A DNA stretch of 64,000 bases from positions 62,001 to 126,000 of the forward strand of contig NZ_KB891988.1 of assembly GCF_000373625.1 (NCBI RefSeq). Direction: 5' to 3'. Numbering within the stretch: position 1 is the first letter of the stretch; every line of letters begins with the position of its first letter. The DNA comes from Streptomyces sp. LaPpAH-108 (GTDB taxonomy: Bacteria; Actinomycetota; Actinomycetes; Streptomycetales; Streptomycetaceae). The notes beneath the pieces are model-generated. The model worked only from the letters and a program-made list of their open reading frames with translations. It was not told the DNA's origin and ran no database searches. Position numbers and translations under genes: made by a program. Positions 5,607-25,726 of the stretch are shown piece after piece.

Positions 5607-5642
5607 GTCGACAGGTACCCCACGCCGCGCCAGACTCCCCCG

Positions 5643-6158: not shown

Positions 6159-6562
6159 CCCGTCTCGTCCACGTGGGTCAGTCGGCCGTCGGTCAGGTGC
6201 CAGTACCTCTGGTGGGGGGTCAGGCGCCAGGTTTCGGTGGCGGTGAGGCCCTGGGTGATCCAGGTGTGGAGCTGGGGGAGGGCCTGGGCGCGGAGGAGGG
6301 GGCGGATGGTGGCGCGTTGCGGGGTGGGGACCGGGTGGACGTAGAGGGAGAAGCCGACCGAGTCCGGGTGGATGCCGCGGCCGTAGGTGCGGGGGAGCGG
6401 GGCCACCCAGGACGCGCTCAGGACGATGGACCCGCTGTCCACGCCCGTGAGGAAGTCCAGGTGTGTCACGTGGGTCATGAGCGGGCCCAGGTGCTCGGTG
6501 ATGTCGGTCGTGGTCAGGGGCCAGGCGCGGCCTCGGGGCAGGCGGCGGTTTCGTGCGGACAT
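6155..6562 (-). CDS. Conserved hypothetical protein (135 aa)
   Basis: A 135-residue soluble protein starting MSARNRRLPRGRAWPLTTTD, with no signal peptide or membrane segment. The central part (ASWVAPLPRTYGRGIHPDS, then GFSLYVHPVP) and the tail (WRLTPHQRYWHLTDGRLTHV) look like a compact beta-rich domain that I have seen as a Streptomyces-conserved hypothetical. A longer frame runs to 6637 but would overlap the tRNA terminator hairpin, so ATG 6562 is preferred. It converges with the DinB gene, the stops overlapping by four bases. Function unknown. Confidence 0.65.
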   Translation of the reverse strand: MSARNRRLPRGRAWPLTTTDITEHLGPLMTHVTHLDFLTGVDSGSIVLSASWVAPLPRTYGRGIHPDSVGFSLYVHPVPTPQRATIRPLLRAQALPQLHTWITQGLTATETWRLTPHQRYWHLTDGRLTHVDETG

Positions 6563-6601
6563 GACAGGGAGAGTGGCAGAGAGGGCGCCCGGTGCGGAAA
6601 C

Positions 6602-6641
6602 GACTTTGGGCCGATCCGTCGGAACGGATCGGCCCAAAGTC
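6602..6641 (-). terminator. tRNA-His terminator hairpin
   Basis: An 18-bp perfect inverted repeat (6602-6619 and 6624-6641) with a CGGA loop sits six bases beyond the 3' end of tRNA-His. It is a very stable hairpin well placed to end the tRNA transcript. Confidence 0.7.
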
Positions 6642-6647
6642 CATCAG

Positions 6648-6721
6648 GGTGAGTGACGGGACTTGAACCCGCGACATCCTGGACCACAACCAGGTGCTCT
6701 GCCAGCTGAGCTACACCCACC
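6648..6721 (-). tRNA. tRNA-His (anticodon GUG)
   Basis: On the minus strand the acceptor arm GTGGGTG (6720-6714) pairs with CACTCAC (6655-6649). The D-arm is GCTC...GAGC, the anticodon stem-loop is CCTGGTTGTGGTCCAGG with GTG as anticodon, and the T-arm contains GGGTTCAAGTCCC. A G at the -1 position (complement of 6721) faces C73 (complement of 6648), the identity element of histidine tRNAs. CCA is not encoded. It lies next to ornA and adpA, an arrangement I recall from other Streptomyces. Confidence 0.95.
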
Positions 6722-6814
6722 ACGACCGGCGGTTGAACGTGTCGTTCCCCGACCGGCCGAGAAGAAGTCTACAGGGTTCTCGGGGGTGCTCGCGCACACG
6801 TTTCCGTGTGGGGG

Positions 6815-7417
6815 CTACTGCGGGGGCAGGACGTACTTCGCGGCGATCGTCCGGGCCGTTTCGGAGTCCGGGCCCGGCTGGGGGACGAAGACGGCCTCGC
6901 GGTAGTAGCGCAGCTCGGCGATGGATTCGCGGATGTCGGCAAGCGCGCGGTGGTTGCCGTTCTTCTCCGGGCTGTTGAAGTACGCCCTCGGGTACCAGCG
7001 CCGGGCCAGCTCCTTGATCGAGGAGACGTCCACGATGCGGTAGTGGAGGTGCGCCTCCAGCGTCGGCATGTCGCGCAGCAGGAAGCCGCGGTCGGTGCCG
7101 ACCGAGTTGCCGCACAGCGGCGCCTTGCCCGGCTCCTTGACGTGCTCACGGATGTACGCGAGCACCTGCTCCTCGGCGTCGGCCAGCGTCGTACCGCCGG
7201 CCAGCTCCTCCAGCAGGCCGGACGCGGTGTGCATCTGGCGCACCACCTCCGGCATCGTCTCCAGCGCGGCGTCCGGCGGACGGATGACGATGTCCACGCC
7301 CTCGCCGAGTACGTTCAGCTCGGAGTCGGTGACGAGGGCGGCCACCTCGATGAGCGCGTCGTCGGACAGCGAGAGGCCGGTCATCTCGCAGTCGATCCAC
7401 ACCATGCGATCGTTCAT
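6815..7417 (-). CDS. orn: Oligoribonuclease (3'-to-5' exoribonuclease)
   Basis: A 200-residue DEDDh exonuclease that degrades 2-5 nt RNAs (and pGpG from c-di-GMP turnover) to mononucleotides in the cytoplasm. Catalytic residues are visible: D9 and E11 in [11 protein letters not shown]109 in [11 protein letters not shown]156 and D161 in [11 protein letters not shown]. Length is normal for bacterial Orn. ATG 7417 ([15 protein letters not shown]) is chosen over an upstream ATG because family members start here. In Streptomyces, ornA lies beside adpA and its loss impairs aerial development. A separate promoter is likely because a hairpin lies between it and adpA. Confidence 0.95.
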
Positions 7418-7474
7418 GTGTCTCACCTTACGGTGAGCCGACCCCACCTGAACCCGGCCGTGCGCGAGGTATGG

Positions 7475-7519
7475 GGGGAGGGGGAGGGGCGTGTGACGTC
7501 CGCCCTCTTCCCCCTCCCC
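7475..7519 (-). terminator. Hairpin downstream of adpA
   Basis: GGGGAGGGGGA (7475-7485) pairs with TCCCCCTCCCC (7509-7519), a perfect 11-bp stem between the adpA stop (7546) and the ornA start. A smaller repeat, GATCCC-TAC-GGGATC (7523-7537), lies nearer adpA. Either could end the adpA transcript. Confidence 0.4.
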
Positions 7520-7545
7520 GATGATCCCTACGGGATCCCCTACGG

Positions 7546-8766
7546 TCAGACCCCGCCCCGCGCCCCCGGCAGCAGACTCACCGCACCCGCCGCATGCCTG
7601 CGACTCTGCAGCGGGACTCCCCCGTCACGCTCCGCGTGCAGTACGGCGGGCACCTGGCCGACCACGCCATGGCCGGCCAGGCCGACCGCGGTGCCGGTCA
7701 CACCCGGCGGCGGCAGCGGCGACTCCTGCTCGACCGGCCGTTCGCCCTGCGGCCTGCGGGCCCGGTAGGCGGCCCGGTAGGCGGCGGGGGACGAGCCGAG
7801 CTGGCGGCGGAAGTGCCCGCGCAGCGCGACCGGCGAGCGGAAGCCGCACCGGCCCGCGACCTCGTCCACGGAGTAGTCCGAGGTCTCGAGCAGCCGCTGT
7901 GCCTGGAGCACCCGCTGGGTGATCAGCCACTGCAGCGGCGCGCTGCCGGTGAGCGAGCGGAAACGGCGGTCGAACGTACGGCGGCTCATATAGGCGCGTG
8001 CCGCCAGCGTCTCCACGTCGAACTGCTCGTGGAGGTGTTCCAGCGCCCAGGCGACGACCTCGGCCAGCGGGTCGGCGCCGATCTCCTCGGGTAAAGACCT
8101 GTCGAGATAGCGCTCCTGACCGCCACTGCGGCGCGGCGGGACCACCAGACGCCGGGCGAGCGCGCCCGCCGCCTCGTTGCCGTGGTCCGTCCGCACGATG
8201 TGGAGACAGAGGTCGATCCCGGCCGCCGTCCCCGCGGAGGTCAGTACGTCGCCGTCGTCCACGAAGAGTTCCCGTGGATCGACGTGCACCGACGGATAGC
8301 GCTTGGCCAGCGTCGGCGCGTACATCCAGTGGGTGGTCGCCGGGCGGCCGTCCAGCAGGCCGGCCGCCGCCAGGACGAACGCCCCGGTGCACAGGCCGAC
8401 GATGCGGGCCCCCTCCTCGTGTGCGCGGCGCAGCGCGTCGAGCGCCTCCTCCGGCGGTGGGGAGGTGATCGAACGCCAGGCCGGTACGACGACCGTCCCC
8501 GCGCGGGAGATCGCCTCCAGGCCATGCGGCGCGGTGAGTTCCAGGCCCCCTGTGGTCCGCAGCGGGCCGTCCTCGCCCCCGCACACCAGCAGTCGGTAGC
8601 GCGGTACTCCGGCGTCCTGGCGGTCGATGCCGAACACCGAAAGCGGTATGGAACTCTCGAAGATGGGGCCGCCGCTGAACAGCAGCACCGCGACGATCTC
8701 CTTGCGGCGTCGCCCGGCGAGCTTCCGGGCTGCGGCATCCGGCGCTGCGGTGGAGTCGTGGCTCAT
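7546..8766 (-). CDS. adpA: AdpA, AraC-family master regulator of development, with bldA-dependent TTA codon
   Basis: A 406-residue protein. Residues about 25-195 form a DJ-1/PfpI-like domain ([20 protein letters not shown], with the nucleophile-elbow cysteine in [15 protein letters not shown]). Residues about 235-335 form an AraC-type double HTH ([19 protein letters not shown], then [18 protein letters not shown]). Codon 225 is TTA (8094-8092), between the two domains. This is the known point where bldA tRNA controls adpA translation in Streptomyces. AdpA binds TGGCSNGWWY sites and activates or represses hundreds of genes, including its own. The neighbouring ornA and tRNA-His support the identification. 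The C-terminal tail after the HTH is variable and low in complexity. Confidence 0.96.
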
Positions 8767-9144
8767 ACTGCTAAGCCCCCCTCGGTGGTCGCGGCTCCTC
8801 GGTTGTGTCGCTCCTGCACGTTTCCCCTCGGTCCTGCACGAGTCCCCCGCCGTAAGACAGTCAAGATCGAATCTACTGGCTGCCGTGGTCTGCCGGTGGC
8901 CAGTTCTCCACGTCACGCATTGTCGACATGACAACTTGGCGTGAAGCATTCGATCACGAAGGGTTGCACTCGTGGGCCGCGCAGGGAAGTGCGCCTCAGC
9001 GTGGTGGCCAAACCGCATAGGGTGCGTGGGGTCTCGTGGACCCTGTTTGTGCAGGTGGAACGGGGGATGAAGGGTGGTTGCGACCCCTCCGGAGCGATAT
9101 TCAGAAGTTGGCTGAAAAGCAGCGTTCCGAGGCGCGGAAACCGG
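8767..9144. other. adpA upstream region without a gene
   Basis: About 380 bp lie between adpA and the next gene. The part nearest adpA (to about 8940) is less GC-rich than the surroundings and holds an AdpA-consensus match, a second near match TGGCGTGAAG (8937-8946) and an inverted repeat TTGTC-5-GACAA around 8919-8933. In other species adpA has a long leader with multiple AdpA sites. No convincing open frame is seen. Confidence 0.5.
8897..8906 (+). promoter_or_regulatory. Candidate AdpA-binding site upstream of adpA
   Basis: TGGCCAGTTC matches all ten positions of the published AdpA consensus TGGCSNGWWY and lies about 130 bp upstream of the adpA start. Autoregulation of adpA is known in S. 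griseus. Use of this site here is inferred. Confidence 0.45.
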
Positions 9145-9456
9145 TCAGTCAACCGGTGTCTGTCGTTCCGCCTTCGTCGCGGCGCGCTCGAAGTGGCGAA
9201 GGAGCGCCCAGCATGTTCCCGTCACGGCGGTCAGGCCAAGGCCCGCCCCTGCGGCGGTCACCGGCGGGGCGCCGCACCACAGCAGGACGACGGGGACGAG
9301 CAGGCACCCGAACACACCCCAGCCGATCACGTCACGCACGGTGTCCGGCGCGGACGGCACGGACGGTGCGGACGGCGCCGATGAAGCCGACGGGCCGCCC
9401 TGCGCGGCCGACGACTCGGCGCGCGGTGCGGCGGCGGTGGGCCGGGCTGCGGGCAT
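9145..9456 (-). CDS. Small two-helix membrane protein (103 aa)
   Basis: A 103-residue protein. The first 40 residues are rich in Ala, Ser and Pro (MPAARPTAAAPRAESSAAQG). Two closely spaced membrane helices follow: VIGWGVFGCLLVPVVLLWCG and VTAAGAGLGLTAVTGTCWAL. The short charged tail reads FERAATKAERQ. GGGAGCAG upstream of ATG 9456 may serve as ribosome binding site. It lies upstream of adpA on the same strand but 378 bp away, so it probably forms a separate unit. I do not recognise the family. Function unknown. Confidence 0.6.
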   Translation of the reverse strand: MPAARPTAAAPRAESSAAQGGPSASSAPSAPSVPSAPDTVRDVIGWGVFGCLLVPVVLLWCGAPPVTAAGAGLGLTAVTGTCWALLRHFERAATKAERQTPVD

Positions 9457-9838
9457 CGGACTGCTCCCTGGGGGCTGCGGTTCAGGGGGTTCAACGCGGC
9501 CGGGCCCGGTCGGTCACCGGGCGGACCCGGATTTCCGTACAACGGTCATGGCGCGATGGTCACCTCCCGGCCCCCGGCCGGTCCCGCCCCCGTCCCCTGA
9601 TCCCGTACAAAACCGCGTGTACGGGGCAGCGACCATTGCGCCCCGCGCGTCGCTCGTGCATTCTCCGGGGAACCCCCTGGGGCACCCCGGAGGGCCGCTC
9701 ACGGAGCGTGCGGGAGATCTGGGCTCGGGAGGCGTGCCGCCGTACCCTTGGGGGTATGGGCTTGGGAAGACGAATCCCGGACACAGCTCCGCCGCACGAT
9801 GTCCCCCTCCCATAAAGGATCACAACGCCGAGACAGCC
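9457..9838. other. Divergent promoter region with several inverted repeats
   Basis: This gap separates the small membrane protein from the universal stress protein. CCCGTACA (9602-9609) and TGTACGGG (9618-9625) form a perfect inverted repeat spaced by eight bases, suiting a dimeric regulator. CTCCGGGG (9663-9670) and CCCCGGAG (9685-9692) form a stable hairpin. No gene is apparent. Confidence 0.45.
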
Positions 9839-10366
9839 ATGGCCGGTCACGAATTCTTCGAACCCGCGGACCGCAAGCGGCCGGTTGCCGAACCGACGGC
9901 GGCCGACCCCCTGGCGGCGGAAGAGGCACGCCCTTCCTGCGATCCCGCCTTCCAGCACGGAGTGGTCGTCGGCTTCGACGGCTCCACCTCCAGCGAGCGC
10001 GCCCTCGCCTACGCGATCGGCGTGGCCTGGCGATCCGGCTCCGGCCTGATCATCGTCCATGTGGCCAACCGGCTGCCCACCACCGTGTGGGCGGGCTGCG
10101 AGCCGCCCGTCTTCGTCGATGTGCCCGACCACCGCACCGAAGTGCTCGGTCTTGAGCTGGCCTGCGCGGACCATCTCGCCGAGGTGCCCTGGATCCTGGT
10201 CGAGCGCGGCGGCGACATCTGCCATGAACTCGAGGAGGTCGGGCGGGAGTACGAGGCGGACGCGATCGTGGTCGGCTCGACCCACGGCCTGGTCGGCCGT
10301 CTCTTCGGCTCGGTGGCGGGGCGGCTGGCCAAGCGGGCCCGCCGCCCGGTGATCGTGATCCCCTGA
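9839..10366 (+). CDS. Universal stress protein (UspA family)
   Basis: A 175-residue protein with one Usp domain after a ~38-residue extension. The strand-1 motif GVVVGFDGSTSSERALAYAI carries the nucleotide-contacting Asp. The C-terminal GSTHGLVGRLFGSVAGRLAK, then RRPVIVIP, contains the G-x2-G-x9-G(S/T) phosphate-binding signature, so this member probably binds ATP. It is cytoplasmic and likely induced by stress or hypoxia, as for actinobacterial DosR-type Usp proteins. ATG 9839 lacks a clear Shine-Dalgarno sequence. It is followed by a strong bidirectional hairpin. Confidence 0.87.
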   Translation: MAGHEFFEPADRKRPVAEPTAADPLAAEEARPSCDPAFQHGVVVGFDGSTSSERALAYAIGVAWRSGSGLIIVHVANRLPTTVWAGCEPPVFVDVPDHRTEVLGLELACADHLAEVPWILVERGGDICHELEEVGREYEADAIVVGSTHGLVGRLFGSVAGRLAKRARRPVIVIP

Positions 10367-14624: not shown

Positions 14625-16394
14625 TCAGAACGCCGCGAGCGGGTTCTGCAGGGTGCCGATGAGCTGGAGCGCGCCGGACGGGTCCGCGAGGTCCACCATC
14701 TGCTTGTTGTTGCGCAGCTGGAGCCGGTTCAGGCAGGACAGCGCGAACTCGGGCGCGAACATGTCGTACTGCGCGAACTTCTCCGCCAGCTGCGGGTTCG
14801 CCGCCTGGTACTCCCGGGTGATCTCCGCGACCGTGCCCCAGAACTCGTCCTCGGTGAGGATGCCCTCGGCCGCCAGGTTGGACGCGAGGAAGCGGAAGAA
14901 GCAGTCGAAGACGTCCGTGAAGATCGACAGCAGCTTCGTGTCCTCGGGCACCTCGACCCGGATGCGCCGGACCTCGGGCGGCAGCACCGCGTCCGGGTCC
15001 ATCACGGCGATCTCCTCCGCGATGTCCTTGTACACCGCGCGCCGGACCGCGCCGTCCGCCAGGACCAGGATCACGTTCTCGCCGTGCGGCATGAACACCA
15101 GGTCGTAGGCGTAGAAGCTGTGCAGCAGCGGCACGTAGTACGCGCGCAGGTAGTCGCGCAGCCAGTCGGCGGGTGCCTGCCCGGAGCGCTCGATCAGCGC
15201 GCCAGCGAAGGAGGCGCCGTCCTGGTCGACATGGAGCAGCGAGGCCATGGTCGCCAGCGACTCGCCCTCGGCGAGCCGGGACACCGGGGACTCCCGCCAC
15301 AGCGCGGCCAGCATCTTGCGGTACGGCGAGTAGCGGTCGGTCGCCCGCTCGTACTCCAGGTGCCGGTAGCCGACGGCCGCCTGCTCGCGGATGATCGTCA
15401 GGCCCGTGCCGCTGAGCACCGGGTCGTTCTCGATCAGCTGGGCCAGCCAGTCGTTGATCGCCGGGGTCGCCTCCATGTACGCGGCCGAAAGACCACGCAT
15501 GAAGCCCATGTTGAGGACGGACAGGGCCGTCTTCACATAGTGCTTCTCCGGGTGCGAGGCGTTGAAGAACGTCCGGATGGACTGCTGGGCCAGATACTCG
15601 TCCTCGCCCTCGCCCAGGCACACCAGATGGCGGCGGGCCACCTCGGCGGCGAAGGTCACGCTGAGCTTGTTCCACCACTGCCAGGGGTGGACCGGGATCA
15701 GCAGATAGTCCTCCGGGTCGAGACCCTGCGCGGTGAGCACGCCCCGGAAGCGCTCCAGGACGGTCTCGCCCAGCTCGCGCCGGAAGAACTCCTCGTACTC
15801 GACGCCCGCCCCGGCGGTGAACGCGGCGCGCGAGCGGTGCGCGGCCAGCCAGACCAGTTTCAGCGGGCTCGCGGTCTCCGGCGCGTACGCCAGATACTCG
15901 TGCACACCGAAGCCGAGCCGCCCGTTGTTCGCGACGAAGCACGGGTGGCCCTCGGTCATCCCGGTCTCGATCTCCTGGAACGAGCCGGCCGCCAGCTCCT
16001 TCGCGGTGACGCGGGGCTTGGTGAGCTTGTAGCAGGTGCCGGACAGGGTGGAGGAGATCTCCTCCAGGTAGACCGGCAGGATCTCCTCGCTCAGGCCGAG
16101 CGCTTCCTTGAACTCGATGAAGAAGTCCAGGGCGGCGAGCGGGAGTTCGGAGCCGTCGCGGTGCCGGGTGATCGAGTCTTCGGCGATCTGCCAGTGGTCG
16201 AGGCCCCGGCGTACGGCGGAGAAGCGGTACGCGGTCAGTTTGTCGTCGCTGCGGACGACGTACTGCTCCCCGTCCTCCTCGGGCGTGAGCAGCCGCTCAT
16301 GGGCGAACTCCGCGAGGGCTTTGCGGATCAGCAGGCGGTTGGCCTGGTCCCAGCGCTCGGGGGAGAGATGGGCGACGGAGTCGGCGAGGCTCAT
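14625..16394 (-). CDS. desD: Desferrioxamine synthetase DesD (NIS synthetase, IucA/IucC family)
   Basis: A 589-residue ATP-dependent NRPS-independent siderophore synthetase. It joins and cyclises succinyl- or acyl-hydroxycadaverine units into desferrioxamine E/B. Family motifs include GHPCFVANNGRLGFG near the N-terminal third, LIPVHPWQWWNKL, HYVKTALSVLNMGFMRGLSA and the C-terminal LHSFYAYDLVFMPHGENVIL. Length is typical. It is the last gene of desABCD: its ATG overlaps the desC stop (ATGA, 16391-16394), so translation is coupled. The operon is expected to be repressed by iron through the box at 19661-19685. Confidence 0.96.
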   Translation of the reverse strand: MSLADSVAHLSPERWDQANRLLIRKALAEFAHERLLTPEEDGEQYVVRSDDKLTAYRFSAVRRGLDHWQIAEDSITRHRDGSELPLAALDFFIEFKEALGLSEEILPVYLEEISSTLSGTCYKLTKPRVTAKELAAGSFQEIETGMTEGHPCFVANNGRLGFGVHEYLAYAPETASPLKLVWLAAHRSRAAFTAGAGVEYEEFFRRELGETVLERFRGVLTAQGLDPEDYLLIPVHPWQWWNKLSVTFAAEVARRHLVCLGEGEDEYLAQQSIRTFFNASHPEKHYVKTALSVLNMGFMRGLSAAYMEATPAINDWLAQLIENDPVLSGTGLTIIREQAAVGYRHLEYERATDRYSPYRKMLAALWRESPVSRLAEGESLATMASLLHVDQDGASFAGALIERSGQAPADWLRDYLRAYYVPLLHSFYAYDLVFMPHGENVILVLADGAVRRAVYKDIAEEIAVMDPDAVLPPEVRRIRVEVPEDTKLLSIFTDVFDCFFRFLASNLAAEGILTEDEFWGTVAEITREYQAANPQLAEKFAQYDMFAPEFALSCLNRLQLRNNKQMVDLADPSGALQLIGTLQNPLAAF

Positions 16395-16924
16395 GCGGCC
16401 ACCCCCGTCGCCGCCTCGAACCGCTCCCGCGTGCAGAAGCTCAGCAGGGCGCGCTTCTCCGGCTTCTCTATCTCGCGCTCGGCCTCGAAGCCGACGGCCT
16501 CGTTGAGCACGTGCACGGCCTTGTTGCGCACGTCCGGCTCCACGACCACGCGCCGGGTCGCCGGGTCCGCGAACAGATGGGCCATCACGGCCGTGATCAC
16601 CGACCGGGTGAATCCGTGCACGGGCGTGTCCGTGGGCGGCACCAGGAAGTGCATCCCGACGTCCCCCTCCTGAGGCTCGTACAGCCCGACCAGCTCCCGG
16701 TGGGCCGGGTCGTAGCTCTCCATCAGGAAGACCGGCGCTCCGGACTCGTCCAGACCGAGGAAGGCGTGGTGGTGCGGGTCGGCCGCGATCTCCATGTAGG
16801 CGCGCTCGACGTCCACCAGGCGTGCGTCCTGCATCATCCAGAACGCGGCCTTCGGGTCGGTGACCCAGCCGTGGACGAGCCGCGCGTCCTTCAGGGGGTC
16901 GAGCGGGCGGATCGTGAAGGTCAT
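16391..16924 (-). CDS. desC: Hydroxycadaverine N-acyltransferase DesC
   Basis: A 177-residue acyltransferase of the IucB/GNAT type that acylates N-hydroxycadaverine with succinyl-, acetyl- or other acyl-CoA, making the hydroxamate building block. Motifs are [25 protein letters not shown]-like [25 protein letters not shown] and [20 protein letters not shown], with VVVEPDVRN near the end. It overlaps desB upstream (ATGA at 16921-16924) and desD downstream by four bases, a tightly coupled arrangement. Size matches known DesC. Confidence 0.95.
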
Positions 16925-18195
16925 ACGGCGAACTCCTGGAAGGCGATGGTCTTCTCCACCGGGTAGTACTCCCTGCCGAGCAGGTCGCGGATGATGGAGG
17001 CGTTCCGGTAGGGGCCCATGCCCAGGTCGGGGCTGGTCACGCTGTGGGTGTGGACACCCGCGTTCTGGAGGAAGACGCCCCGGCCCGTGGTGTCGATCGC
17101 GTAGTTGCGGGCGATGTCGAAGTTGCCGTGGGAGTCGTAGCGCAGACGGTCGCGGACCGGCTTCAGGAACTCCGGCTCGCGGTACTGGTAGCCGGTGGCG
17201 AGCACCAGGCCGTCGCTCTCCAGCTCGAAGTCCTTGCCCTGCTCCTCCTGGCGGAAGGCGAGGGTGTAGCTGCCGTCCTCGTAACGGGCGCTGGTGAGGG
17301 CGGAGTTGGTGAGCAGGCGGGTGGGGACCGGGCCGCCGAGGTTCTTCTGGTAGAGCAGGTCGAAGATCTCGTTGATCAGCTCGCCGTCGATGCCCTTGAA
17401 CAGGCCCTTCTGCGCGGTGGCGAGCCGGTAGCGGGTGTCCTCCGGGAGCGCGTGGAAGTAGTCGATGTACTCCGGGGAGGTCATCTCCAGCGTGAGCTTG
17501 GTGTATTCGAGCGGGAAGAAGCGCGGGGAGCGGGTGACCCAGTTGAGCCGGTAGCCGTGGACGTCGATCTCGCTGAGGAGGTCGTAGTAGATCTCCGCCG
17601 CCGACTGGCCGCTGCCGACCAGGGTGATGGAGCGCTTCTTCTGCAGCTCCGCCTTGTGCTGGAGATAGCGGGAGTTGTGCAGGAAGTCGCCGCCGAGGTC
17701 CTGGCACGCCTCGGGGATGTACGGCGGGGTGCCGGTGCCGAGGACCAGATGCCTGGCGCGGTAGGTGTCACCGGCCTGCGTGTGCACGGCGTACACGCCG
17801 TCCTCGTACGTCACTTCGGTGACCGTGGTGCTGAACCGCACGCTGGTCAGCTTGTTGGCCGCCCAGCGGCAGTAGTCGTCGTACTCCACGCGCAGCGGGT
17901 AGAAGTTCTCGCGGATGTAGAACGAGTACAGACGGCCTTTCTCCTTCAGGTAGTTGAGGAAGGAGTACGGCGAGGTCGGGTCGGCCAGGGTGACCAGGTC
18001 CGACATGAACGGCGTCTGGAGGTGGGCGCCTTCGAGGAACATCCCGGCGTGCCACTCGAAGTCGGGCTTCGAGTCGAGGAAGACGCCGTTCAGCTCGTCG
18101 ATGGGCTCGGTCAGACAGGCAAGGCCGAGGTTGAAGGGACCGAGGCCGATCCCCACGAAGTCAAGGACGGGGCTGGCTTCAGGAAGCGCGGTCAA
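16921..18195 (-). CDS. desB: Cadaverine N-monooxygenase DesB
   Basis: A 424-residue flavin-dependent N-hydroxylase of the lysine/ornithine monooxygenase family. It uses FAD, NADPH and O2 to convert cadaverine to N-hydroxycadaverine. The FAD-binding motif [14 protein letters not shown] is near residue 15, the substrate/FAD region reads [20 protein letters not shown], the NADPH motif is [14 protein letters not shown], and the C-terminal [12 protein letters not shown] is the family signature. It overlaps desA upstream by 17 bp and desC downstream by 4 bp. Cytoplasmic. Confidence 0.96.
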
Positions 18196-19621
18196 GGGAC
18201 TCTCCCAGGTACTGCTCGGCGTGGCCGGCGATCAGATCGAGGACGGCGGCGATGTCGGCCGCGGTGGTCTCGGGGTTGAGCAGGGTGAACTTCAGGTAGT
18301 GGCGTCCGCCGACCTTGGTGCCCGCGACGACGGCGTCACCGGAGGCGAACAGGGCCTTGCGGGCGTAGAGGTTGGCGCGGTCGATCTCGGCGGGGTCGGT
18401 GACCCCGGCCGGGATGTAGCGGAAGACGAGGGTGGACAGGGACGGGGCCACGACCACGTCGTAACGCGGGTCGGTGGCAAGGAGCTTCCAGCCCTCCTGG
18501 GCCAGTTCGCAGACCTCGTCGAAGAGTTCGCCGATGCCGTCCGCGCCCATCACGCGCAGCGTCATCCACAGCTTGAGCGCGTCGAAACGGCGCGTGGTCT
18601 GGAGGGACTTGTCGACCTGGTTGGGGATGCGCTCCTGGACCATGCGGCGCGGGTTGAGGTACTCCGCGTGGTAGGTGGCGTGGCGCAGGGTGGCCACGTC
18701 GCGCACCAGGAGGGCGGACGAACTCACCGGCTGGAAGAAGGACTTGTGGTAGTCCACGGTGACCGAGTCGGCGCGCTCGATGCCGTTCAGCTTGTCGCGG
18801 TGCTTGAGCGAGGTGAGCAGGCCGCAGCCGTACGCGGCGTCCACGTGCATCCACACGCCGAACTGCTCGCACAGCTCGGCGATTTCGGGGAGCGGGTCGA
18901 TGGAGCCGAAGTCGGTGGTGCCCGCGGTGGCGACGACGGCCATCGGGACCAGGCCGTCCTGGACGGCGCGCTCCAGCTCGTGGGCGAGTGCGACGGTGTG
19001 CATCCGCTTGTCGTGGTCCACGGGGATGGTCACGACCGCGTCCGGGCCGAGGCCGAGCAGTTTCGCGGACTTCTTCACGCTGAAGTGGCTCACCTCGGAG
19101 GTGAACACCCGCAGTTTGTCCAGGGATTCGGCCTTGGCCTCCTCGCGGGCGAGCAGCAGGGCCTGGAGGTTGGACTGGCTGCCGCCGGAGGTGAAGACCC
19201 CGTCGGCGTTCTCACCGAGGCCGATGCGCTCGGTGGTCCAGTCGATCAGTTTCCGCTCGATGAGCGTGCCGCCTGCCGACTGGTCCCAGGTGTCCAGCGA
19301 GGAGTTGACGGCGGAGAGCACGGCCTCGCCGAGCACCGCCGGTATGACGACCGGGCAGTTGAGGTGGGCGAGGTAGCGGGGGTGGTGGAAGTAGACGGCG
19401 TCGCGGAGGTACAGCTCCTCCAGCTCGTCCAGGACGGCGGCGGTGTCGCCGAGCGGGCGGTCCAGGTCGACGGCGTCGATGCGGGGGGTGAGGTCGTCGA
19501 CGGTGACGCCGGTGAACGGACGTTCGGTGGTGGCCAGTTTGGCAGCCACCCGCTCTACTCCTTCGGTCACGGAGCGGCGGTAGTGCTCCGCGGTGAGGCC
19601 ATTGAGCAGGTGCGAGCGCAT
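18179..19621 (-). CDS. desA: Lysine decarboxylase DesA (PLP-dependent)
   Basis: A 480-residue group II PLP decarboxylase that turns lysine into cadaverine, committing it to desferrioxamine synthesis. Motifs are [20 protein letters not shown] (PLP phosphate binding), WMHVDAAYG (pyridine-stacking Asp region), and [20 protein letters not shown] with the Schiff-base lysine. Length agrees with DesA. It is first in desABCD; the transcript probably starts just upstream, where a 25-bp iron-box palindrome lies 40 bp before the ATG. It resembles aromatic or diaminobutyrate decarboxylases, but the operon context settles the substrate. Confidence 0.95.
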
Positions 19622-19660
19622 GTGGGGGTCCTCCGAGGGGACTGTCCGTGCGGGAACTTC

Positions 19661-19685
19661 AACTTAGGTTAGCCTAACCTAAGTT
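19661..19685. promoter_or_regulatory. Iron box (DmdR1/DtxR-type operator) of desABCD
   Basis: This is a perfect 25-bp palindrome centred on C at 19673. Its core TTAGGTTAGCCTAACCTAA (19664-19682) matches the known DtxR/DmdR1 iron-box consensus. It lies 40 bp upstream of desA, so iron-loaded regulator should block the operon. Confidence 0.92.
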
Positions 19686-19990
19686 AGCTCGGGGGTGATC
19701 ACGGGGGTGCGGTGACGGGGGTCACGTCGGCGTTGCGCTTGGCTTTGGCGGGTGGGGGTGCCGGGGGTGCGCGGGGTGGCCGGGCGCGGGTGCGGACGTC
19801 GCGGTTGCGAGGAGAGGTGACGCGGACACGCGTCGGAGCGGTGGGGGTGGGGGGAGTGGGGGCGCGTCTCAATGGCCCGCGGGTCGCGTGGCCGGGCGGC
19901 TCCGGGGCTGCGTCGATCGGGCCGGACGGATTCGCCACCCCGCGCACGGTGGAGCCGCGTGTCGAAGTGGCTGAGGGAGCGCCGGTCATG

Positions 19991-20056
19991 GCCGCCCTCC
20001 GCGGACCGGACTCCCGCCCACGGTATGCGGCAGGAGTCCGGTCCGCGGAGGGCGGC
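19991..20056. repeat. 24-bp perfect inverted repeat between desE and desA
   Basis: The arms 19991-20014 and 20033-20056 are perfectly complementary over 24 bases with an 18-base loop. It is the longest perfect hairpin in the window. It lies downstream of desE and could stop desE transcription before the desA promoter. Confidence 0.6.
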
Positions 20057-20158
20057 GGTTCTGGGGGTGACCGGAACGGCGGCGGCCCGAGCCCCGACGC
20101 CGCCCGTCCGCGCCGAGGCGAGGAGCAGATGCGAGGTGACTCGGCTGCCGCGCCGCGG

Positions 20159-20215
20159 TCTCCTGAGCCCGGCCCGGCTCTCCGGGTGCTTTCCCGGGCG
20201 GCCGGGTTCAGGAGA
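20159..20215 (-). terminator. Terminator-like compound hairpin after desE
   Basis: A 16-base arm (20159-20174) pairs with 20200-20215, with a single G-T wobble. A smaller CCGGG/CCCGG hairpin lies in the loop. It begins 15 bases after the desE stop. Confidence 0.55.
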
Positions 20216-20230
20216 CGGGGGAGCGGGAGG

Positions 20231-21286
20231 TCAGCTGACCTTCTTGGCCTTCTCGATGGCCTCGGCGAGATTCGTCAGAAGCGGGACGCACTTGTCGTAG
20301 GAGAGGATCGGCTCGGGAGAGCGGGAGATGACCTGGCCGGCCTTGACCGCGGGGAGCTTCTTCCAGGTCGCCTTGGTGATGTCCGCAGGCTGGATCGTCG
20401 AGGCGCGGTCGTCCATGATGATCACGTCGGCGGGGTACTTGTCGACGTTCTCCCAGCTCAGGGTCTCGTACCAGCCACCGGTGGACTTCTTGGCCTTCTC
20501 CGGGGGCTCCACGAGGTTCACGCCGAGGGCCTTGAAGTACTCCAGGTCGATCGAGTAGTGCGAACCGGAGACGTAGAAAACGTCCTGGGCGGCCGAGCCG
20601 GCCAGCACCTTGATCTCGGGGCGGGCCTTCGCGGCCTTGCGCAGCCGCTCGGCGGCGGCCTCGAACCTCGTCTTCGCGTCGACGGCCTTCGGCGCCTTCA
20701 GGTCGGCGCCCAGCGACTTGGCCAGTGCGGCCATGTGCTCCAGGGACACGGGCAGTTGGCGGTTCCAGGCGGCGATGCCCACGCTCGGGGCGATCTTGGC
20801 GATCTTGGCCTTGGACTCCTCCGGCACGTACCAGAGGGTGCCGGAGGAGTCGAACACCGTGGTGATGAGCACGTCCGGCGCCATGGCCGCGTACTTCTCC
20901 ACGTTGAACTGGCCCCAGACATTGCCAAGGACCGTGACCTTGCTGATGTCCATGTCGCCGGCCTGCACGTCGGCCTTGCCGTCCTTGGTCCTGGTCGGGC
21001 CGAAGACGCCCTTGACCTGGATGCCGTAGTCGTAGAGGGCGGCGCCGACGCCGACGAACGCGACGATGTTCGAGGGGACGGCGTCCAGCTTCACGGTCGT
21101 GCCGCGGTCGTCCTTGAACGACCAGGGGCCCGACGCCTTGCCGGACGTCGACCCGGTTGCCGAGCCACCGCTTTTGGCGTCGTCATCCCCACAGGCCGCG
21201 AGCACGGCGCCGAGACCGAGGGCACCACCAGCGGCGAGTATGCCGCGGCGGGTGAGGTGGGTGGCACGGACGTTGGGCATGGGCAT
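20231..21286 (-). CDS. desE: Ferrioxamine-binding lipoprotein DesE
   Basis: A 351-residue periplasmic-type binding lipoprotein for hydroxamate siderophores, feeding an ABC importer. The signal peptide RATHLTRRGILAAGGALGLG has a twin-arginine character and ends in the lipobox LAAC, with the lipidated cysteine at about residue 32. A Gly/Ser/Thr-rich tether follows, then the class III binding fold (PSNIVAFVGVGAALYDYGIQ, MAPDVLITTVF). ATG 21286 gives a normal signal; an in-frame start at 21322 is less likely. It is transcribed separately from desABCD but is controlled by its own iron box, so uptake and synthesis respond together. Confidence 0.93.
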   Translation of the reverse strand: MPMPNVRATHLTRRGILAAGGALGLGAVLAACGDDDAKSGGSATGSTSGKASGPWSFKDDRGTTVKLDAVPSNIVAFVGVGAALYDYGIQVKGVFGPTRTKDGKADVQAGDMDISKVTVLGNVWGQFNVEKYAAMAPDVLITTVFDSSGTLWYVPEESKAKIAKIAPSVGIAAWNRQLPVSLEHMAALAKSLGADLKAPKAVDAKTRFEAAAERLRKAAKARPEIKVLAGSAAQDVFYVSGSHYSIDLEYFKALGVNLVEPPEKAKKSTGGWYETLSWENVDKYPADVIIMDDRASTIQPADITKATWKKLPAVKAGQVISRSPEPILSYDKCVPLLTNLAEAIEKAKKVS

Positions 21287-21329
21287 GCTGCTTTCGAAGG
21301 GGGCGGAGCGCCCGCCGGACAATTCGAAA

Positions 21330-21489: not shown

Positions 21490-22263
21490 CTACGCGGCCG
21501 TCTTCTGTTCGCGAGCCAGGGCCTTGGCCGCGTCGCGGCGCTTGCCGGACAGTACGTCCACCGGGGCGCCGGCGCCCTTGCCGGGCTGCTTCTCCCAACC
21601 GCGAAGCTTGGCGACCACCTTGGCCAGCAGCGGGCTGCCCGGCTTCACCGCGACGTAGAACAGCGACTCGTCGGGCGTCTTGTCGTCCCCGCCCCAGCGG
21701 ACGACGCCTTCGAGTTCGGCGAGGATGTCGCGGATCACCAGTTGCTGCGGGGTGAAGAAGCCGCCTCTGGCACCGCTCGGGTAGTGCTCCGGACGGATCT
21801 GTACCGCGGTCCCGGAAGCCTGGTTGGCCTCGGACAGCCTGCCGCGCACCGTGCTCGGGCTGCGCCAGCCGACCACATCGCCCCCGCGCAGCTCGTCCAC
21901 CTCGTAGTGGAACCGGCGGATGACGTGAACGAGCACGGTCTCCACGTCGCCGATCCGTACGGCGACGCCCTTGACGGGGGTGCCGGGGACCGGCCGGGTC
22001 CACACGAACCCGCCCTTGTCGGTGGTCAGTTCCATCTCCCAGCCGTTGGGGCTCGGCTTGCCGGACTGGGTGCGCTTGCCACGGGCCAGCGCACGGCGGG
22101 CCGCGTCCCTGAGGTGCTTCGGCTGGGCGTATCGGTTCGCCGCGTGCGCGGGCGAGGCGAGGTACTCGGAGAAGGGCAGCGTGGCCGCTGCCGTGGCGCC
22201 CGCGATCACTGCGGTCCGGGCGAGGAAGGTACGGCGGGAAAGCGTGCGGCGGGAAGAAGTCAT
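21490..22263 (-). CDS. Tat-exported M15-peptidase homologue lacking zinc ligands
   Basis: A 257-residue protein with a twin-arginine signal (SRRTFLA, residues 9-15) and cleavage near SPAHA at about 41. The C-terminal half resembles M15-type D-Ala-D-Ala carboxypeptidases: NQASGTAVQI (147-156), YPSGARGGFFTPQQ, VVRWGGD (187-193), then DESLFYV (198-204). In active members these read HASGTAxDI and (D)xMHFE. Here the zinc histidine is Gln148, the zinc aspartate Gln155 and the second histidine is replaced in LFYV. It is probably a non-catalytic wall-binding domain. It is the last gene of an operon, its ATG overlapping the preceding stop (22260-22263). Confidence 0.7.
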   Translation of the reverse strand: MTSSRRTLSRRTFLARTAVIAGATAAATLPFSEYLASPAHAANRYAQPKHLRDAARRALARGKRTQSGKPSPNGWEMELTTDKGGFVWTRPVPGTPVKGVAVRIGDVETVLVHVIRRFHYEVDELRGGDVVGWRSPSTVRGRLSEANQASGTAVQIRPEHYPSGARGGFFTPQQLVIRDILAELEGVVRWGGDDKTPDESLFYVAVKPGSPLLAKVVAKLRGWEKQPGKGAGAPVDVLSGKRRDAAKALAREQKTAA

Positions 22264-22751
22264 GAACGCCTTGTCTCTCTCTTGAAGTCCCGAGTGGCCC
22301 GGCGCTCGGTTTCCAGCAGGCTGAAACCGCCCAGCGCGACGGCGGCGAGTGCGAGAGCGCCCACCGCGGGGTTGATGTAGCCGGGCACGCCGATCGAATA
22401 GGTGGTACCGCTCTTCACATGGCAGCCGAGGCCGAGGGGGATGTAGGTGGGCCGGTAGGAATCGATCTCCAGGACCCGCGCCGGACCCACCGCCGCCTTG
22501 CAGCCGAGGTCCCGTCCCGTCTCGTCCAGCGTCAGCAGATGCAGGGCACCCCAGGCGTAGAGGCAGGCCGCGCCGGCCCCCGCGAGCGCCGCGAACGAGC
22601 GCAGCTGGACCAGCAGGCCCGCCCGTCTGACGCCGTGGCGGGCCACCGTCGCGAAGCCGTAGACGGCCAGTGCGGCGGCGGCCGACAGGCCGAGAAGAAC
22701 GAGGAGAAGCAGCGCCAAGGGGTTGTGCCCCTCGTACGGGTCCGTGGACAT
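22260..22751 (-). CDS. Membrane protein with an extracytoplasmic cysteine loop (163 aa)
   Basis: A 163-residue protein with three or four hydrophobic segments: ALLLLVLLGLSAAAALAVYG, then SFAALAGAGAACLYAWGALH, and a final VGALALAAVALGGFSLL. Between the second and third lies a polar loop with two cysteines (DLGCKAA and LGLGCHVKSG) and the motif DSYRPTYIPLGLGCHV. I recall similar loops in Streptomyces membrane proteins of unknown role. It lies between the DUF1906 gene (37 bp upstream) and the M15 homologue (overlapping by four bases), so it is almost certainly cotranscribed. Holin-like or anchoring roles are possible but unproved. Confidence 0.7.
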   Translation of the reverse strand: MSTDPYEGHNPLALLLLVLLGLSAAAALAVYGFATVARHGVRRAGLLVQLRSFAALAGAGAACLYAWGALHLLTLDETGRDLGCKAAVGPARVLEIDSYRPTYIPLGLGCHVKSGTTYSIGVPGYINPAVGALALAAVALGGFSLLETERRATRDFKRETRRS

Positions 22752-22788: not shown

Positions 22789-25032
22789 CTACCGCCGGGA
22801 CAGTCCGTTGTACTTCTCGAAGAGCTGGTAGAGCGCCATGCGCTTGTTCGCGTGCGCCTCGGCCTCGTTGCCCCAGCCCTGATAGCGGCGCAGGACCTGG
22901 AAGATCTCGGACTGGGTGTAGTCCAGGCTCATGGTGCGCATGACGCTCTCACCGCTCGGCGGGTTCTGGCCGCCCGCCTTGCCGGACGCGTCCCACAGGT
23001 GGATGAGGGGGACGGTGCGGATCGAGTAGGCGTTGTCCTGGTTGACCTTGTGCCACATGGTCCAGATGTCGGGGTCCTTGGCGGGGTCGAGGATGGTGCC
23101 CTGGACGATGCCGGCCTGGATGCAGTGGTTCCAGGCACGGATGCCCACCTCACCACTGATCTGCGCGATACCGGTGGAGGAGTCGCGCTTGGGGACGATG
23201 CCGTCCGCCCCGCTTCCGGTGTGGTAGAGGGTGACGGCGGCATCGACGCCGAGGTCGACCACGTCGTAGTGGCGCATCTCCCAGTAGGCCGAGGTCTGGA
23301 TCAGCGCCTTGCGCATGTTGTACGCGTTCGACAGCTGGGTGATCAGGCTGTCGTGGGACATGATCGTCTCAAGACACTCGGTGTGTGTGAAGATCCGGGT
23401 GATGTCCGAGTCCGGGAAGCCGATCTGCTGCATGTAGGTGCTGATGTCGGCGTGCAGGATGTCGTAGTACGACGAGAAGTTGAACGCGGTGTCCGGGTCG
23501 CTGTCGAGGTACGACGCGTTGAAGGAACCCTCACCGATGTCGCGCCCCGAGGCGATGTTGTGGTCGACCTCGATGGCACCGTCGCCCGAGCCGAGCACCC
23601 GCGTGACGACCTGGTCGTAGGCCCAGTTGGCCGGTAGCGGATAGCCGTAGTTGCCGGAGAAACCGCTGGACATGTCGGAGACGAAGCTCGCCGTGGCGTG
23701 GCCCGCTTCGGACACCCGGATGCAGACGTTGCGCGGCCCGTAGACACCGACCCGGTAAGGGTTGTTGTACATCGCCAGGGCGTCCTGGACACCCTTGAAG
23801 TAGGGCAGGACGCTGTCGGTCACCTCGTAGTCGTAGGCGTCGAAGTCGACCGCGAAGAAGATCCGGGCACCGTTCTTGAAGCCGTGGCGCTGGGCGGCGG
23901 CGATGGCGGCGAGACCGTCCGCGCTCCCGGAGGGGTAGCTGTAGCCGCTGGCGTCGCGGCCGTAGGTCTGCCAGATCGGGAAGCAGCGCAGCCCGTTCTC
24001 GGCGATGGTCTGGAGCTCGCCGGCCTGGATCTCCTTCTCGTAGGGCTTTCCGCCGGTGGCATTGATCAGATAGCGGCCGATGTACTTGACGCCCTCGGCC
24101 TTGAGGGCCGCCGCGCGGGCGGCGGTGATCTTCGTGACGCCGTCGCAGGCCTCGCCCCTGCGGTTCTGGTCGCCGTACGAGACCAGGAGGGACGCCCAGG
24201 TGGAGAAGTCGCCCCTGCCGGTGACCGGGAGCTTCACGAACGCCTGGAACGCGGCCGTCTCACTGGCGACCGTGCTGTTGAAGAGGGAGGTGAAGGGCGT
24301 CGCCGAACGGCCGTTGAGGATCAGCGCGGCGCTGTACAGCTGCGCCCAGGTGCCCGCGGACCCCTCGGAGAGCGTGTGGTCGGCCAGGCCCGACCTGGTC
24401 CCCGGGCCGAACACGCCGTTGGCGGTGCCGTCGGCCATGCCGAGCTCGTACTGGATGGCGTACAGCATGGACGAGGACACGGTCCGCGAGTGGTGGCCGT
24501 CGCACGGCACGATGAAGAAGTCCTGGCGCCCTATGTAACGGCCGTTCAGCCACTGCTGGATATCACGGATCGTCGAACTGCCGCCGTTCACCACGACATA
24601 GGGGTCCATGTTGAGCAGCGCCTTGAAGACCTTGGGGTAGAGGGCGCCCTCGTCCGGGAACGACGGAAGCACACCCATGTCGATCTTCAGCTTGCGCACC
24701 GAGTCGGCGACGCGGCTGTTGTACGTCCCGTCCATGTCGCCGCCGTCGTAGCCCTTGCAGTAGAGCCCGGCCTGGATGATACGGGCGAAATTGGCCGACG
24801 GGACATTCCCGTTCTTCAGCACGGGATACTTCGACTGCAGGGTGTTGAGAGTCGTCGGTCCGAAGGTGTTGGAGAGCGAGCTGATTCCGAGTTCGAGCTG
24901 GAGGGCGCGGGTGAGCGCGTACATCACGGTCCAGCTCGTCTGGCCGTTCTCCTCCAGCGGCTCTATGCCCAGCATGTTGGGATATGTCGTATTGATGAAG
25001 CGCTGGGCGCGGATTACCATCTCGTCGGCCAT
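22789..25032 (-). CDS. DUF1906 (Rv2525c-like glycoside hydrolase-like) multidomain protein without signal peptide
   Basis: A 747-residue protein. Residues about 1-290 contain repeated peptidoglycan-binding-like modules (FGPTTLNTLQSKYPVL, DGTYNSRVADSVRKLKIDMG, GVFGPGTRSGLADHTLSE). Residues about 295-505 form a DUF1906 TIM-barrel-like domain (KYIGRYLINATGGK, FPIWQTYG, GARIFFAVDFDAYDYEV, WAYDQVV, EVDHNIA). Residues 575-640 contain SAYWEMRHYD and SSTGIAQISGEVG, reminiscent of a lysozyme/transglycosylase. A wall-degrading role is likely, yet no signal peptide or membrane segment is visible at MADEMVIRAQRFINTTYPN. It is first in a three-gene operon. Codon use includes ATA, ACA and AAT more than its neighbours. 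The C-terminal assignment is tentative. Confidence 0.75.
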   Translation of the reverse strand: MADEMVIRAQRFINTTYPNMLGIEPLEENGQTSWTVMYALTRALQLELGISSLSNTFGPTTLNTLQSKYPVLKNGNVPSANFARIIQAGLYCKGYDGGDMDGTYNSRVADSVRKLKIDMGVLPSFPDEGALYPKVFKALLNMDPYVVVNGGSSTIRDIQQWLNGRYIGRQDFFIVPCDGHHSRTVSSSMLYAIQYELGMADGTANGVFGPGTRSGLADHTLSEGSAGTWAQLYSAALILNGRSATPFTSLFNSTVASETAAFQAFVKLPVTGRGDFSTWASLLVSYGDQNRRGEACDGVTKITAARAAALKAEGVKYIGRYLINATGGKPYEKEIQAGELQTIAENGLRCFPIWQTYGRDASGYSYPSGSADGLAAIAAAQRHGFKNGARIFFAVDFDAYDYEVTDSVLPYFKGVQDALAMYNNPYRVGVYGPRNVCIRVSEAGHATASFVSDMSSGFSGNYGYPLPANWAYDQVVTRVLGSGDGAIEVDHNIASGRDIGEGSFNASYLDSDPDTAFNFSSYYDILHADISTYMQQIGFPDSDITRIFTHTECLETIMSHDSLITQLSNAYNMRKALIQTSAYWEMRHYDVVDLGVDAAVTLYHTGSGADGIVPKRDSSTGIAQISGEVGIRAWNHCIQAGIVQGTILDPAKDPDIWTMWHKVNQDNAYSIRTVPLIHLWDASGKAGGQNPPSGESVMRTMSLDYTQSEIFQVLRRYQGWGNEAEAHANKRMALYQLFEKYNGLSRR

Positions 25033-25273: not shown

Positions 25274-25726
25274 ATGCGAGCCTTCAGCGCAGCCCTGACC
25301 GCATCGGTTGCCGCCGGAATGCTGGTTTTCACGGGAAATCCCGCGCACGCCGAGGACCAGCTGGACCTGAAGAACTGGATGCTGGCCTGTGAGTCGGGAA
25401 ACAACTTCAAGTTCGAGCTGCATTACAACTCCGACAACAAGGGTGCCTGGCGTGACTTCGGCTACGCCGTCGCCAACTTCGACTCCGTGTACAGCGGTCA
25501 GGGATACAAGCCCCTCGTGTTCTGCGACAACGGTGCCGGCGGGTTGCAGAAGGTGAAGAACAACGCCGCGTCGGCGCACAACAGACACACGTCGTACGGC
25601 GCGTGCGTGTACTACAACAGCTGGTTCAACGGGGCGAAGGACGCGCTGCAGCCCGCGGTTCCCGCCCCGGTGAGCCGGAACCTGGTGAACACCTACAACC
25701 AGAACGCCTCCTTCCAGTGGTGCTGA
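25274..25726 (+). CDS. Small secreted protein with four cysteines
   Basis: A 150-residue protein with a clear Sec signal (MRAFSAALTASVAAGMLVFT, cleavage after NPAHA). The mature ~122 residues contain four cysteines (MLACES, LVFCDNG, YGACVYY, FQWC), probably two disulfides, and many Asn, Tyr and Trp residues, giving a lower GC than neighbours. GAGGAG at 25261-25266 precedes ATG 25274. It is divergent from the DUF1906 operon, sharing a 241-bp promoter region. I do not recognise the family. A wall-associated binding, inhibitor or antimicrobial role is conceivable, without direct support. Confidence 0.75.
   Translation: MRAFSAALTASVAAGMLVFTGNPAHAEDQLDLKNWMLACESGNNFKFELHYNSDNKGAWRDFGYAVANFDSVYSGQGYKPLVFCDNGAGGLQKVKNNAASAHNRHTSYGACVYYNSWFNGAKDALQPAVPAPVSRNLVNTYNQNASFQWC

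What the first reader, a model, noticed from the sequence alone, without database searches (positions are those of the whole stretch)
22789..25032. Wall-hydrolase-like DUF1906 protein with no export signal
The protein has peptidoglycan-binding-like repeats, a DUF1906 barrel and a lysozyme-like C-terminal region, yet starts MADEMVIRAQ with no signal peptide. Such a protein needs a special route such as lysis, a contractile injection device or coupling to the adjacent membrane protein. No injection or type VII genes are seen here.
Basis: partly seen in the sequence, partly recalled or inferred. Interest (0 to 1): 0.6.

Follow-up and report, generated by a model that had tools for sequence, protein, structure and literature searches.

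The report
Signal-less Streptomyces toxin with swappable tip
The protein is most likely an antibacterial toxin of a soil Streptomyces: a conserved wall-binding body with no export signal, carrying an exchangeable wall-cutting tip that travels together with a matching membrane protein (probably the producer's immunity), built like the enterococcal bacteriocin component BacA.

Summary
The 747-aa gene is real (minus strand, 25032..22789) and has no signal peptide: the start is conserved and no in-frame start lies upstream. Residues 1-505 are a fixed body (duplicated PG-binding pair plus Rv2525c-like barrel). Residues 505-747 are an exchangeable tip: remotely lysozyme-like here, TelC-like in sister genes.

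Two downstream genes complete an operon: a 3-TM protein and a Tat-exported VanY-like protein that has lost all three zinc ligands. Across 40 loci the 3-TM protein tracks the tip, not the body (partial r 0.87 vs 0.29), and close relatives swap tip plus 3-TM as one cassette: toxin-immunity behaviour.

The same body is in E. faecalis BacA (Bac41), where I find 99.6% identical bodies with different tips and next genes. So this is probably a BacA-type polymorphic bacteriocin, not a housekeeping hydrolase. Contractile injection is not needed: this genome has no sheath gene. The export route is unknown; lysis or holin release is likeliest. Killing and immunity are untested. A 2025 eLife paper already predicted the TelC version of the operon as a conflict system, so this is a new variant of a known kind.

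The parts
22789..25032 (-). Toxin gene, 747 aa (P0001), no signal peptide
   Evidence: start conservation
24811..25032 (-). PGBD-like repeat R1, residues 1-74
   Evidence: hhalign R1~R3 E 2.3e-16
24592..24807 (-). PGBD-like repeat R2, residues 76-147
   Evidence: hhalign R2~R4 E 1.7e-5
24361..24591 (-). PGBD-like repeat R3, residues 148-224
24163..24360 (-). PGBD repeat R4, residues 225-290 (Pfam PG_binding_1 at 240-282)
23554..24108 (-). DUF1906 / Rv2525c-like glycoside-hydrolase-like barrel, residues 309-493
   Evidence: PF08924 E 3.9e-51
22792..23520 (-). Exchangeable C-terminal tip (CT-A), residues 505-747, lysozyme-like by predicted fold
23278..23280 (-). Glu585, candidate catalytic acid (invariant in the 40-row tip alignment; Ala in 5 other members)
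23170..23184 (-). D617-S-S-T-G621 motif, candidate second active-site motif
22260..22751 (-). 3-TM protein, 163 aa (3TM-CCDN type), candidate immunity protein; 37 bp after the toxin stop
21490..22263 (-). Tat-exported VanY/M15-like protein, 257 aa, zinc ligands His/Asp/His replaced by Gln/Gln/Leu; overlaps the 3-TM stop by 4 bp

Best explanation
The locus encodes an antibacterial polymorphic bacteriocin of the BacA (bacteriocin 41) type. The signal-less body (duplicated PGBD pair plus Rv2525c-like barrel) binds and engages the peptidoglycan of a rival Gram-positive cell. The tip, which in this gene is a lysozyme-like hydrolase with candidate catalytic Glu585, damages the wall. The 3-TM protein protects the producer against its own tip. 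The Tat-exported VanY-like protein, which has lost its zinc ligands, is a fixed partner that probably binds rather than cuts the wall or its precursors. The toxin leaves without Sec or Tat, most likely when a few hyphae lyse; in Bacillota holins encoded nearby would do this. Shown here: no signal peptide; constant body and variable tip; exchange of tip plus 3-TM as a cassette; obligate VanY-like partner; homology of the body to the BacA gene of pMG2200. Inferred: killing activity, immunity, lysozyme chemistry, release route.
For: (1) Body/tip boundary: in 150 Streptomyces genomes matches are either full-length (1-746) or stop near residue 505-517 and continue into another C-terminus. Tips form two unrelated groups plus two tipless proteins. 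(2) Cassette exchange: S. viridochromogenes (L113) versus S. afghaniensis (L107), syntenic: PG repeats 95%, barrel 92%, VanY-like 92% identical, but tip 64% and 3-TM 48%. DNA identity falls at the tip boundary and recovers to 96% inside the VanY-like gene, with flanks mostly 80-96%. Also L081/L098, L104/L113 and L079/L108 (PG repeats 89%, tip 32%, 3-TM 16%). (3) Over 40 loci: 3-TM vs tip given body, partial r 0.87; 3-TM vs body given tip, 0.29. Body and tip trees conflict. (4) Same pattern in E. faecalis: L119 vs L149 body 99.6%, tip 55%, next gene 28%. L119 is pMG2200, a Bac41-type plasmid by PMC8532689 and PMC10746210. Bac41 activity needs extracellular BacL1 and BacA (PMC9951850). (5) VanY-like protein in 33 of 35 clear toxin genomes and 1 of 115 others, p 1e-29. 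(6) Tip remnants beside an intact 3-TM and VanY-like gene: L058, L146. (7) Glu585 became Ala in two lineages, and all five such loci lack the 3-TM gene. (8) Foldseek top PDB list dominated by lysozyme-superfamily enzymes, including the T6SS muramidase toxin Tse3.
Against: No killing, immunity or release has been tested. Foldseek E-values for the tip are not significant (>= 0.23) and TM-scores are low, so the lysozyme assignment is remote. About 13 Glu-retaining tip loci have no adjacent 3-TM gene. Homologous 3-TM genes occur in 17 genomes without any toxin match, and most of those examined belong to a syntenic stand-alone subfamily, so the 3-TM family is not purely an immunity family. No holin is recognised beside the Streptomyces genes. 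The VanY-like fold was not recovered by structure search.
Confidence: 0.75

Rival explanations
1. A housekeeping wall hydrolase (autolysin, sporulation or hyphal-lysis enzyme) that acts on the producer's own wall after cell lysis.
For: PG-binding and glycoside-hydrolase-like domains; no signal peptide fits release by lysis.
Against: Patchy: 39 of 150 Streptomyces and 4 of 297 genomes sampled across the phylum, two of those being Streptomyces. Tip exchanged together with a fast-evolving membrane protein while the body is conserved. Up to several copies per genome.
Confidence: 0.1
2. The 3-TM protein is a dedicated exporter or holin for the signal-less toxin rather than its immunity protein.
For: It is small, membrane-embedded and directly downstream. 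Holin-family genes lie near homologous toxins in Bacillota.
Against: An exporter should follow the constant body; the 3-TM protein follows the tip (partial r 0.87 vs 0.29). It is absent where Glu585 is lost and occurs alone in genomes without the toxin. In E. faecalis the gene at this position differs with the tip type.
Confidence: 0.1
3. Cargo of a contractile injection system, or a prophage endolysin.
For: phrog_15213 matches residues 2-508 at 3.7e-127. Some polymorphic toxins are delivered by contractile systems.
Against: No sheath gene in this genome, and 9 of 35 toxin genomes lack one. No relative of the tip in 2.9 million viral contigs at this scan's sensitivity. Only two phage-record hits; the better one, MT836466, encodes VirB4-like and other conjugation-like genes, so looks like an integrative element.
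Confidence: 0.05

Closest known systems
BacA of bacteriocin 41 (Enterococcus faecalis, Bac41 operon bacL1-bacL2-...-bacA-bacI)
   Same: Homologous signal-less body (39% identity over the N-module); C-terminal region variable and linked to a different next membrane gene; encoded with a lytic wall enzyme.
   Different: BacA's tip ends in a hydrophobic segment and showed no similarity to the window's lysozyme-like tip; the Bac41 operon has BacL1, BacL2 and a holin, none seen here; Streptomyces has the VanY-like partner. That the 726-aa gene is BacA and the next gene BacI is from gene order and memory; Kurushima 2016 was not readable here.
PGBD + Rv2525c-barrel + TelC proteins with 3TM-CCDN and VanY genes (lipocone paper, eLife 2025 RP108061, PMC12419801)
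   Same: Same body, same two downstream genes, same phylum; authors predict a conflict system.
   Different: Their statement concerns the TelC tip; the window's tip is a different, lysozyme-like domain. They call VanY a secreted peptidase; here its zinc ligands are lost. In the text I read, the exchange of tip and 3-TM as a cassette and the link to BacA are not mentioned.
Rv2525c (Mycobacterium tuberculosis)
   Same: Same barrel family PF08924.
   Different: Rv2525c is Tat-exported and, from memory, lacks the PGBD repeats and the tip.
B. subtilis / B. amyloliquefaciens YbfG
   Same: DUF1906 protein; detected in pellicle and culture liquid of B. amyloliquefaciens (PMC12020853). B. subtilis gives a PF08924 match.
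   Different: Function unknown; sequence and tip not examined here.
Polymorphic toxins (Zhang et al. 2012, PMC3482391)
   Same: Conserved N-terminal body, variable C-terminal tip, adjacent co-varying gene, orphan tip cassettes.
   Different: No recognised trafficking signal in this family (no signal peptide or known secretion domain found); killing not shown.

Membership tests
BacA-type (Bac41) effector | Homologous N-terminal body | tested here: met
   A4 alignment, 39% identity to the pMG2200 protein over the N-module; tblastn E 5e-91
BacA-type (Bac41) effector | Variable C-terminus linked to a type-specific next gene | tested here: met
   Streptomyces; E. faecalis
BacA-type (Bac41) effector | Works with a BacL1-type lysin encoded in the operon | tested here: not met
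   No BacL1-like gene apparent among the called neighbours of the window gene; the VanY-like protein takes the accessory place. Hence I claim BacA-type body and behaviour, not membership of the Bac41 operon family
BacA-type (Bac41) effector | Extracellular bactericidal activity | not testable with these tools
   needs experiment
Polymorphic toxin system | Constant body, swapped tip | tested here: met
Polymorphic toxin system | Cognate immunity gene next to the tip | tested here: inconclusive
   3-TM gene co-varies with the tip, but about 13 loci lack it and protection is untested
Polymorphic toxin system | Recognised trafficking or secretion module | tested here: not met
   No signal peptide; Pfam finds only PF08924 and PF01471
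PGBD-Rv2525c-TelC conflict system (eLife 2025) | TelC lipocone tip | tested here: not met
   Window tip falls in a separate cluster from the TelC-like tips; Foldseek list is lysozyme-type
PGBD-Rv2525c-TelC conflict system (eLife 2025) | 3TM-CCDN gene plus VanY gene downstream | tested here: met
Lysozyme superfamily (tip) | Fold match with a conserved acidic residue | tested here: inconclusive
   Best PDB hits 3gxk, 4m5f, 6ghz with prob 0.54-0.72, E >= 0.23; Glu585 invariant in A2, Ala in 5 other members
VanY/M15 peptidase (third gene) | SxHxxGxAxD and downstream His zinc ligands | tested here: not met
   Gln, Gln, Leu in the window; in tip-A loci ligands retained in 2, 1 and 1 of 49. Homologue L110 keeps all and passes PF13539
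Contractile injection cargo | Sheath cluster in the genome | tested here: not met

The most novel reading that the evidence does not exclude
The PGBD-Rv2525c body is itself a self-sufficient delivery module of a large, plasmid- and chromosome-borne Gram-positive toxin class: it needs no Sec, Tat, T7SS or contractile device, and it carries unrelated tips (lysozyme-like, TelC-like lipid-II phosphatase, hydrophobic pore-like). In Actinomycetota it works with a zinc-less VanY-like pseudo-peptidase that acts as a wall or lipid-II stem-peptide binder, either a receptor or a shield.
Probability: 0.3. Interest if true: 0.75.

Novelty: new variant of a known kind. Interest (0 to 1): 0.58.

Why it matters
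It joins two separate literatures: an experimentally known enterococcal bacteriocin component (BacA) and a computationally predicted actinobacterial conflict operon. It gives a testable toxin-immunity pair in a genetically tractable genus. It raises a concrete open question, how a 500-residue wall-binding body with no export signal gets out of the producer and carries different tips. The family is common on enterococcal and lactobacillus plasmids (384 and 72 plasmid records), so its targeting and immunity rules bear on strain competition.

Tried and rejected
PDB sequence searches with the protein and with the tip profile found nothing. Pfam on the tips found nothing significant. A viral-contig scan with the tip profile found no relatives. 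AlphaFold plus Foldseek on the VanY-like protein was uninformative: mean pLDDT 80.5, models disagree, no M15 hit. A first hhalign run failed and was repeated. Contractile-injection cargo was considered and set aside. PADLOC had no matches. I first suspected frequent recent swapping between the TelC-like and lysozyme-like tips within Streptomyces, but the body tree puts all lysozyme-tip bodies in one clade; the swapping seen is among lysozyme-tip subtypes, while the change between tip classes is old. In the E. faecalis comparison, locus L150's start was mis-set by my script, so only L119 versus L149 is used. Kurushima 2016 (PMC4984558) could not be read.

Full report
What is there. The ORF lies on the minus strand, 25032..22789, 747 aa. 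Pfam identifies the Rv2525c-like barrel at 309-493 and one PG_binding_1 repeat at 240-282. Splitting residues 1-290 into four and comparing profiles shows R1~R3 (E 2.3e-16) and R2~R4 (E 1.7e-5), so the body is a duplicated PG-binding pair followed by the barrel. The gene is followed after 37 bp by a 163-aa 3-TM protein (22751..22260), which overlaps by 4 bp a 257-aa Tat-exported protein (22263..21490; TAT_signal_seq hit). The spacing implies an operon. Further downstream is a siderophore-binding-protein gene (20231-21322, Peripla_BP_2).

No signal peptide. No in-frame ATG/GTG/TTG precedes the ATG. In 46 of 47 related loci the protein starts (M/V/L)AD(E/A) at ATG, GTG or TTG, often with a purine-rich ribosome-binding stretch. 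In 233 close pairs DNA identity is 83% in the first 300 coding bases, 43% at -30..-1 and 34% further up. Bacillota relatives begin at the same place (MDEMV...). The absence of an export signal is therefore a family trait, not a mis-called start.

Two-layer architecture. In 150 Streptomyces genomes, 39 match. Matches are either full-length or end near residue 505-517 and run on into another C-terminus. In the Streptomyces loci read, tips cluster into group A (28 loci, including the window) and group B (15 loci), plus two proteins with no tip and an extra N-terminal domain. Group B tips share the motifs HLMAT and GDxAGWGGDL with each other and are homologous to tips of L. plantarum, E. faecium and Curtobacterium plasmid proteins. 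I read these as the TelC-lipocone tips that an eLife 2025 paper reports fused to PGBD and Rv2525c-like barrels (PMC12419801); this equation rests on motif and architecture and was not tested against TelC itself. A third kind of tip ends in a hydrophobic segment (E. faecalis, Salimicrobium, Terrisporobacter). This genome has three toxins: the window gene, a second group-A gene at C2:628805-631033 with its own 3-TM and VanY-like genes, and a group-B gene at C8:75027.

The window's tip. AlphaFold with 40 homologues gives pLDDT 93.6. Foldseek against the PDB returns g-type lysozyme, MltE, MltC and the T6SS muramidase toxin Tse3 at the top, but with E >= 0.23 and TM <= 0.46. The viral library gives a similar tendency. 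Glu585 and the D617-SSTG621 motif are the best active-site candidates. Five other members have Ala instead of Glu585, in two lineages, and all five lack the 3-TM gene. I call the tip lysozyme-like with moderate confidence.

Tip and 3-TM gene move together. Pairwise distances over 40 loci: 3-TM versus tip, controlling for body, partial r 0.87; 3-TM versus body, controlling for tip, 0.29; VanY-like versus tip 0.60 and versus body 0.37. Syntenic pairs show it directly: S. viridochromogenes (L113) and S. afghaniensis (L107) are mostly 80-96% identical in DNA outside the cassette, 90-97% through the body, then fall to 58-76% from the tip through the 3-TM gene and into the start of the VanY-like gene, then return to 96%. 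In protein terms PG repeats 95%, barrel 92%, tip 64%, 3-TM 48%, VanY-like 92%. L104/L113 and L081/L098 repeat this. In L079/L108 the PG repeats are 89% identical, the tip 32% and the 3-TM 16%. Body and tip trees conflict with support, for example for the L104 group and for L071/L093. An export partner would be expected to follow the constant body; an immunity protein follows the tip. Tip remnants next to an intact 3-TM and VanY-like gene (L058, L146), and a toxin-linked-type 3-TM gene in a genome without toxin (L133), fit this. Against it, about 13 Glu-retaining loci lack an adjacent 3-TM gene, and most solitary 3-TM genes examined belong to a separate syntenic subfamily.

The VanY-like partner. 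It is present in 33 of 35 clear toxin genomes and in 1 of 115 others (Fisher p 1e-29), with both tip classes. The motif SxHxxGxAxD has Gln in place of both the His and the Asp in the window, and the distal His is Leu. Among tip-A loci with readable motifs the three ligands survive in 2, 1 and 1 of 49; only L110 keeps all three, and of the three homologues scanned only it passes the PF13539 cut-off. So in most loci this is a pseudo-peptidase. The fold was not recovered by structure search, so the VanY assignment rests on sequence (phrog_1512) and on the eLife paper's description.

Closest experimental relative. The body is homologous to the 726-aa protein encoded in the Bac41 region of pMG2200, a Bac41-type plasmid according to PMC8532689 and PMC10746210. 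Bac41 killing needs two extracellular proteins, BacL1 and BacA (PMC9951850). The review PMC8532689 states that Bac41 shows partial diversity downstream linked to specific immunity factors. From memory, the cited paper (Kurushima 2016, not held) shows that the C-terminus of BacA and BacI1 or BacI2 set immunity specificity. I reproduced the sequence pattern: L119 versus L149 body 99.6%, tip 55%, next gene 28%. The assignment of the 726-aa gene as BacA is by gene order and memory.

Export. The contractile-sheath family is absent from this genome although found in 92 of 150 Streptomyces. In Bacillota, holin-family genes recur next to the toxin (E. faecalis phage holin; Terrisporobacter and Paraclostridium BhlA/UviB; Terribacillus phage holin), which suggests holin- or lysis-mediated release there. 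No such gene was recognised in Streptomyces; release by lysis of some hyphae is an inference.

Verdict. A BacA-type polymorphic bacteriocin with a lysozyme-like tip: a new variant of a known kind. The three-gene arrangement is published for the TelC tip. New, to my knowledge and within the papers I could search, are the lysozyme-like tip, the cassette exchange of tip plus 3-TM, the loss of zinc ligands in the VanY-like partner, and the link of this operon to BacA.

Noticed in passing
L026, L027, L028, L029, L057: Tip members with Ala in place of Glu585 have no 3-TM gene between the toxin and VanY-like genes: a natural loss-of-activity and loss-of-immunity pairing, two lineages.
   Followed up: partly
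L127 (MT836466.1) 1-10212: Record labelled 'Bacteriophage sp.' encodes VirB4-like and other conjugation-like genes plus a body with a hydrophobic-tip toxin and a YcxB-like next gene; it looks like an integrative conjugative element, not a phage.
   Followed up: partly
L049, L051: Relatives with the body but no tip and an extra N-terminal domain of about 200 aa, still followed by a VanY-like gene.
   Followed up: no
L129, L131, L132, L134, L135: A syntenic stand-alone subfamily of the 3-TM protein next to a 100-aa protein (MAKxPSAxVAAGGLVGGYGVARW) in genomes mostly without the toxin; function unknown.
   Followed up: partly
L122, L152, L153, L119: Holin-family genes (BhlA/UviB or phage holin), and in L119 and L122 also sigma-like regulators, lie beside the toxin in Bacillota plasmids; resembles UviA/UviB-type bacteriocin release.
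   Followed up: partly
window 14625-21322: Genes that look like a desferrioxamine-type siderophore cluster plus a Peripla_BP_2 binding protein flank the toxin operon; similar binding-protein neighbours occur at L018 and L057.
   Followed up: no
window 25274-25726: Divergent gene for a 150-aa protein with a signal-peptide-like start and no Pfam match, directly upstream of the toxin.
   Followed up: no
L006 8206-10578 and downstream: The genome's TelC-like-tip toxin has a Tat-type 343-aa exported protein next to it instead of the VanY-like protein, possibly the 'Ig-pair' alternative of the eLife paper.
   Followed up: no
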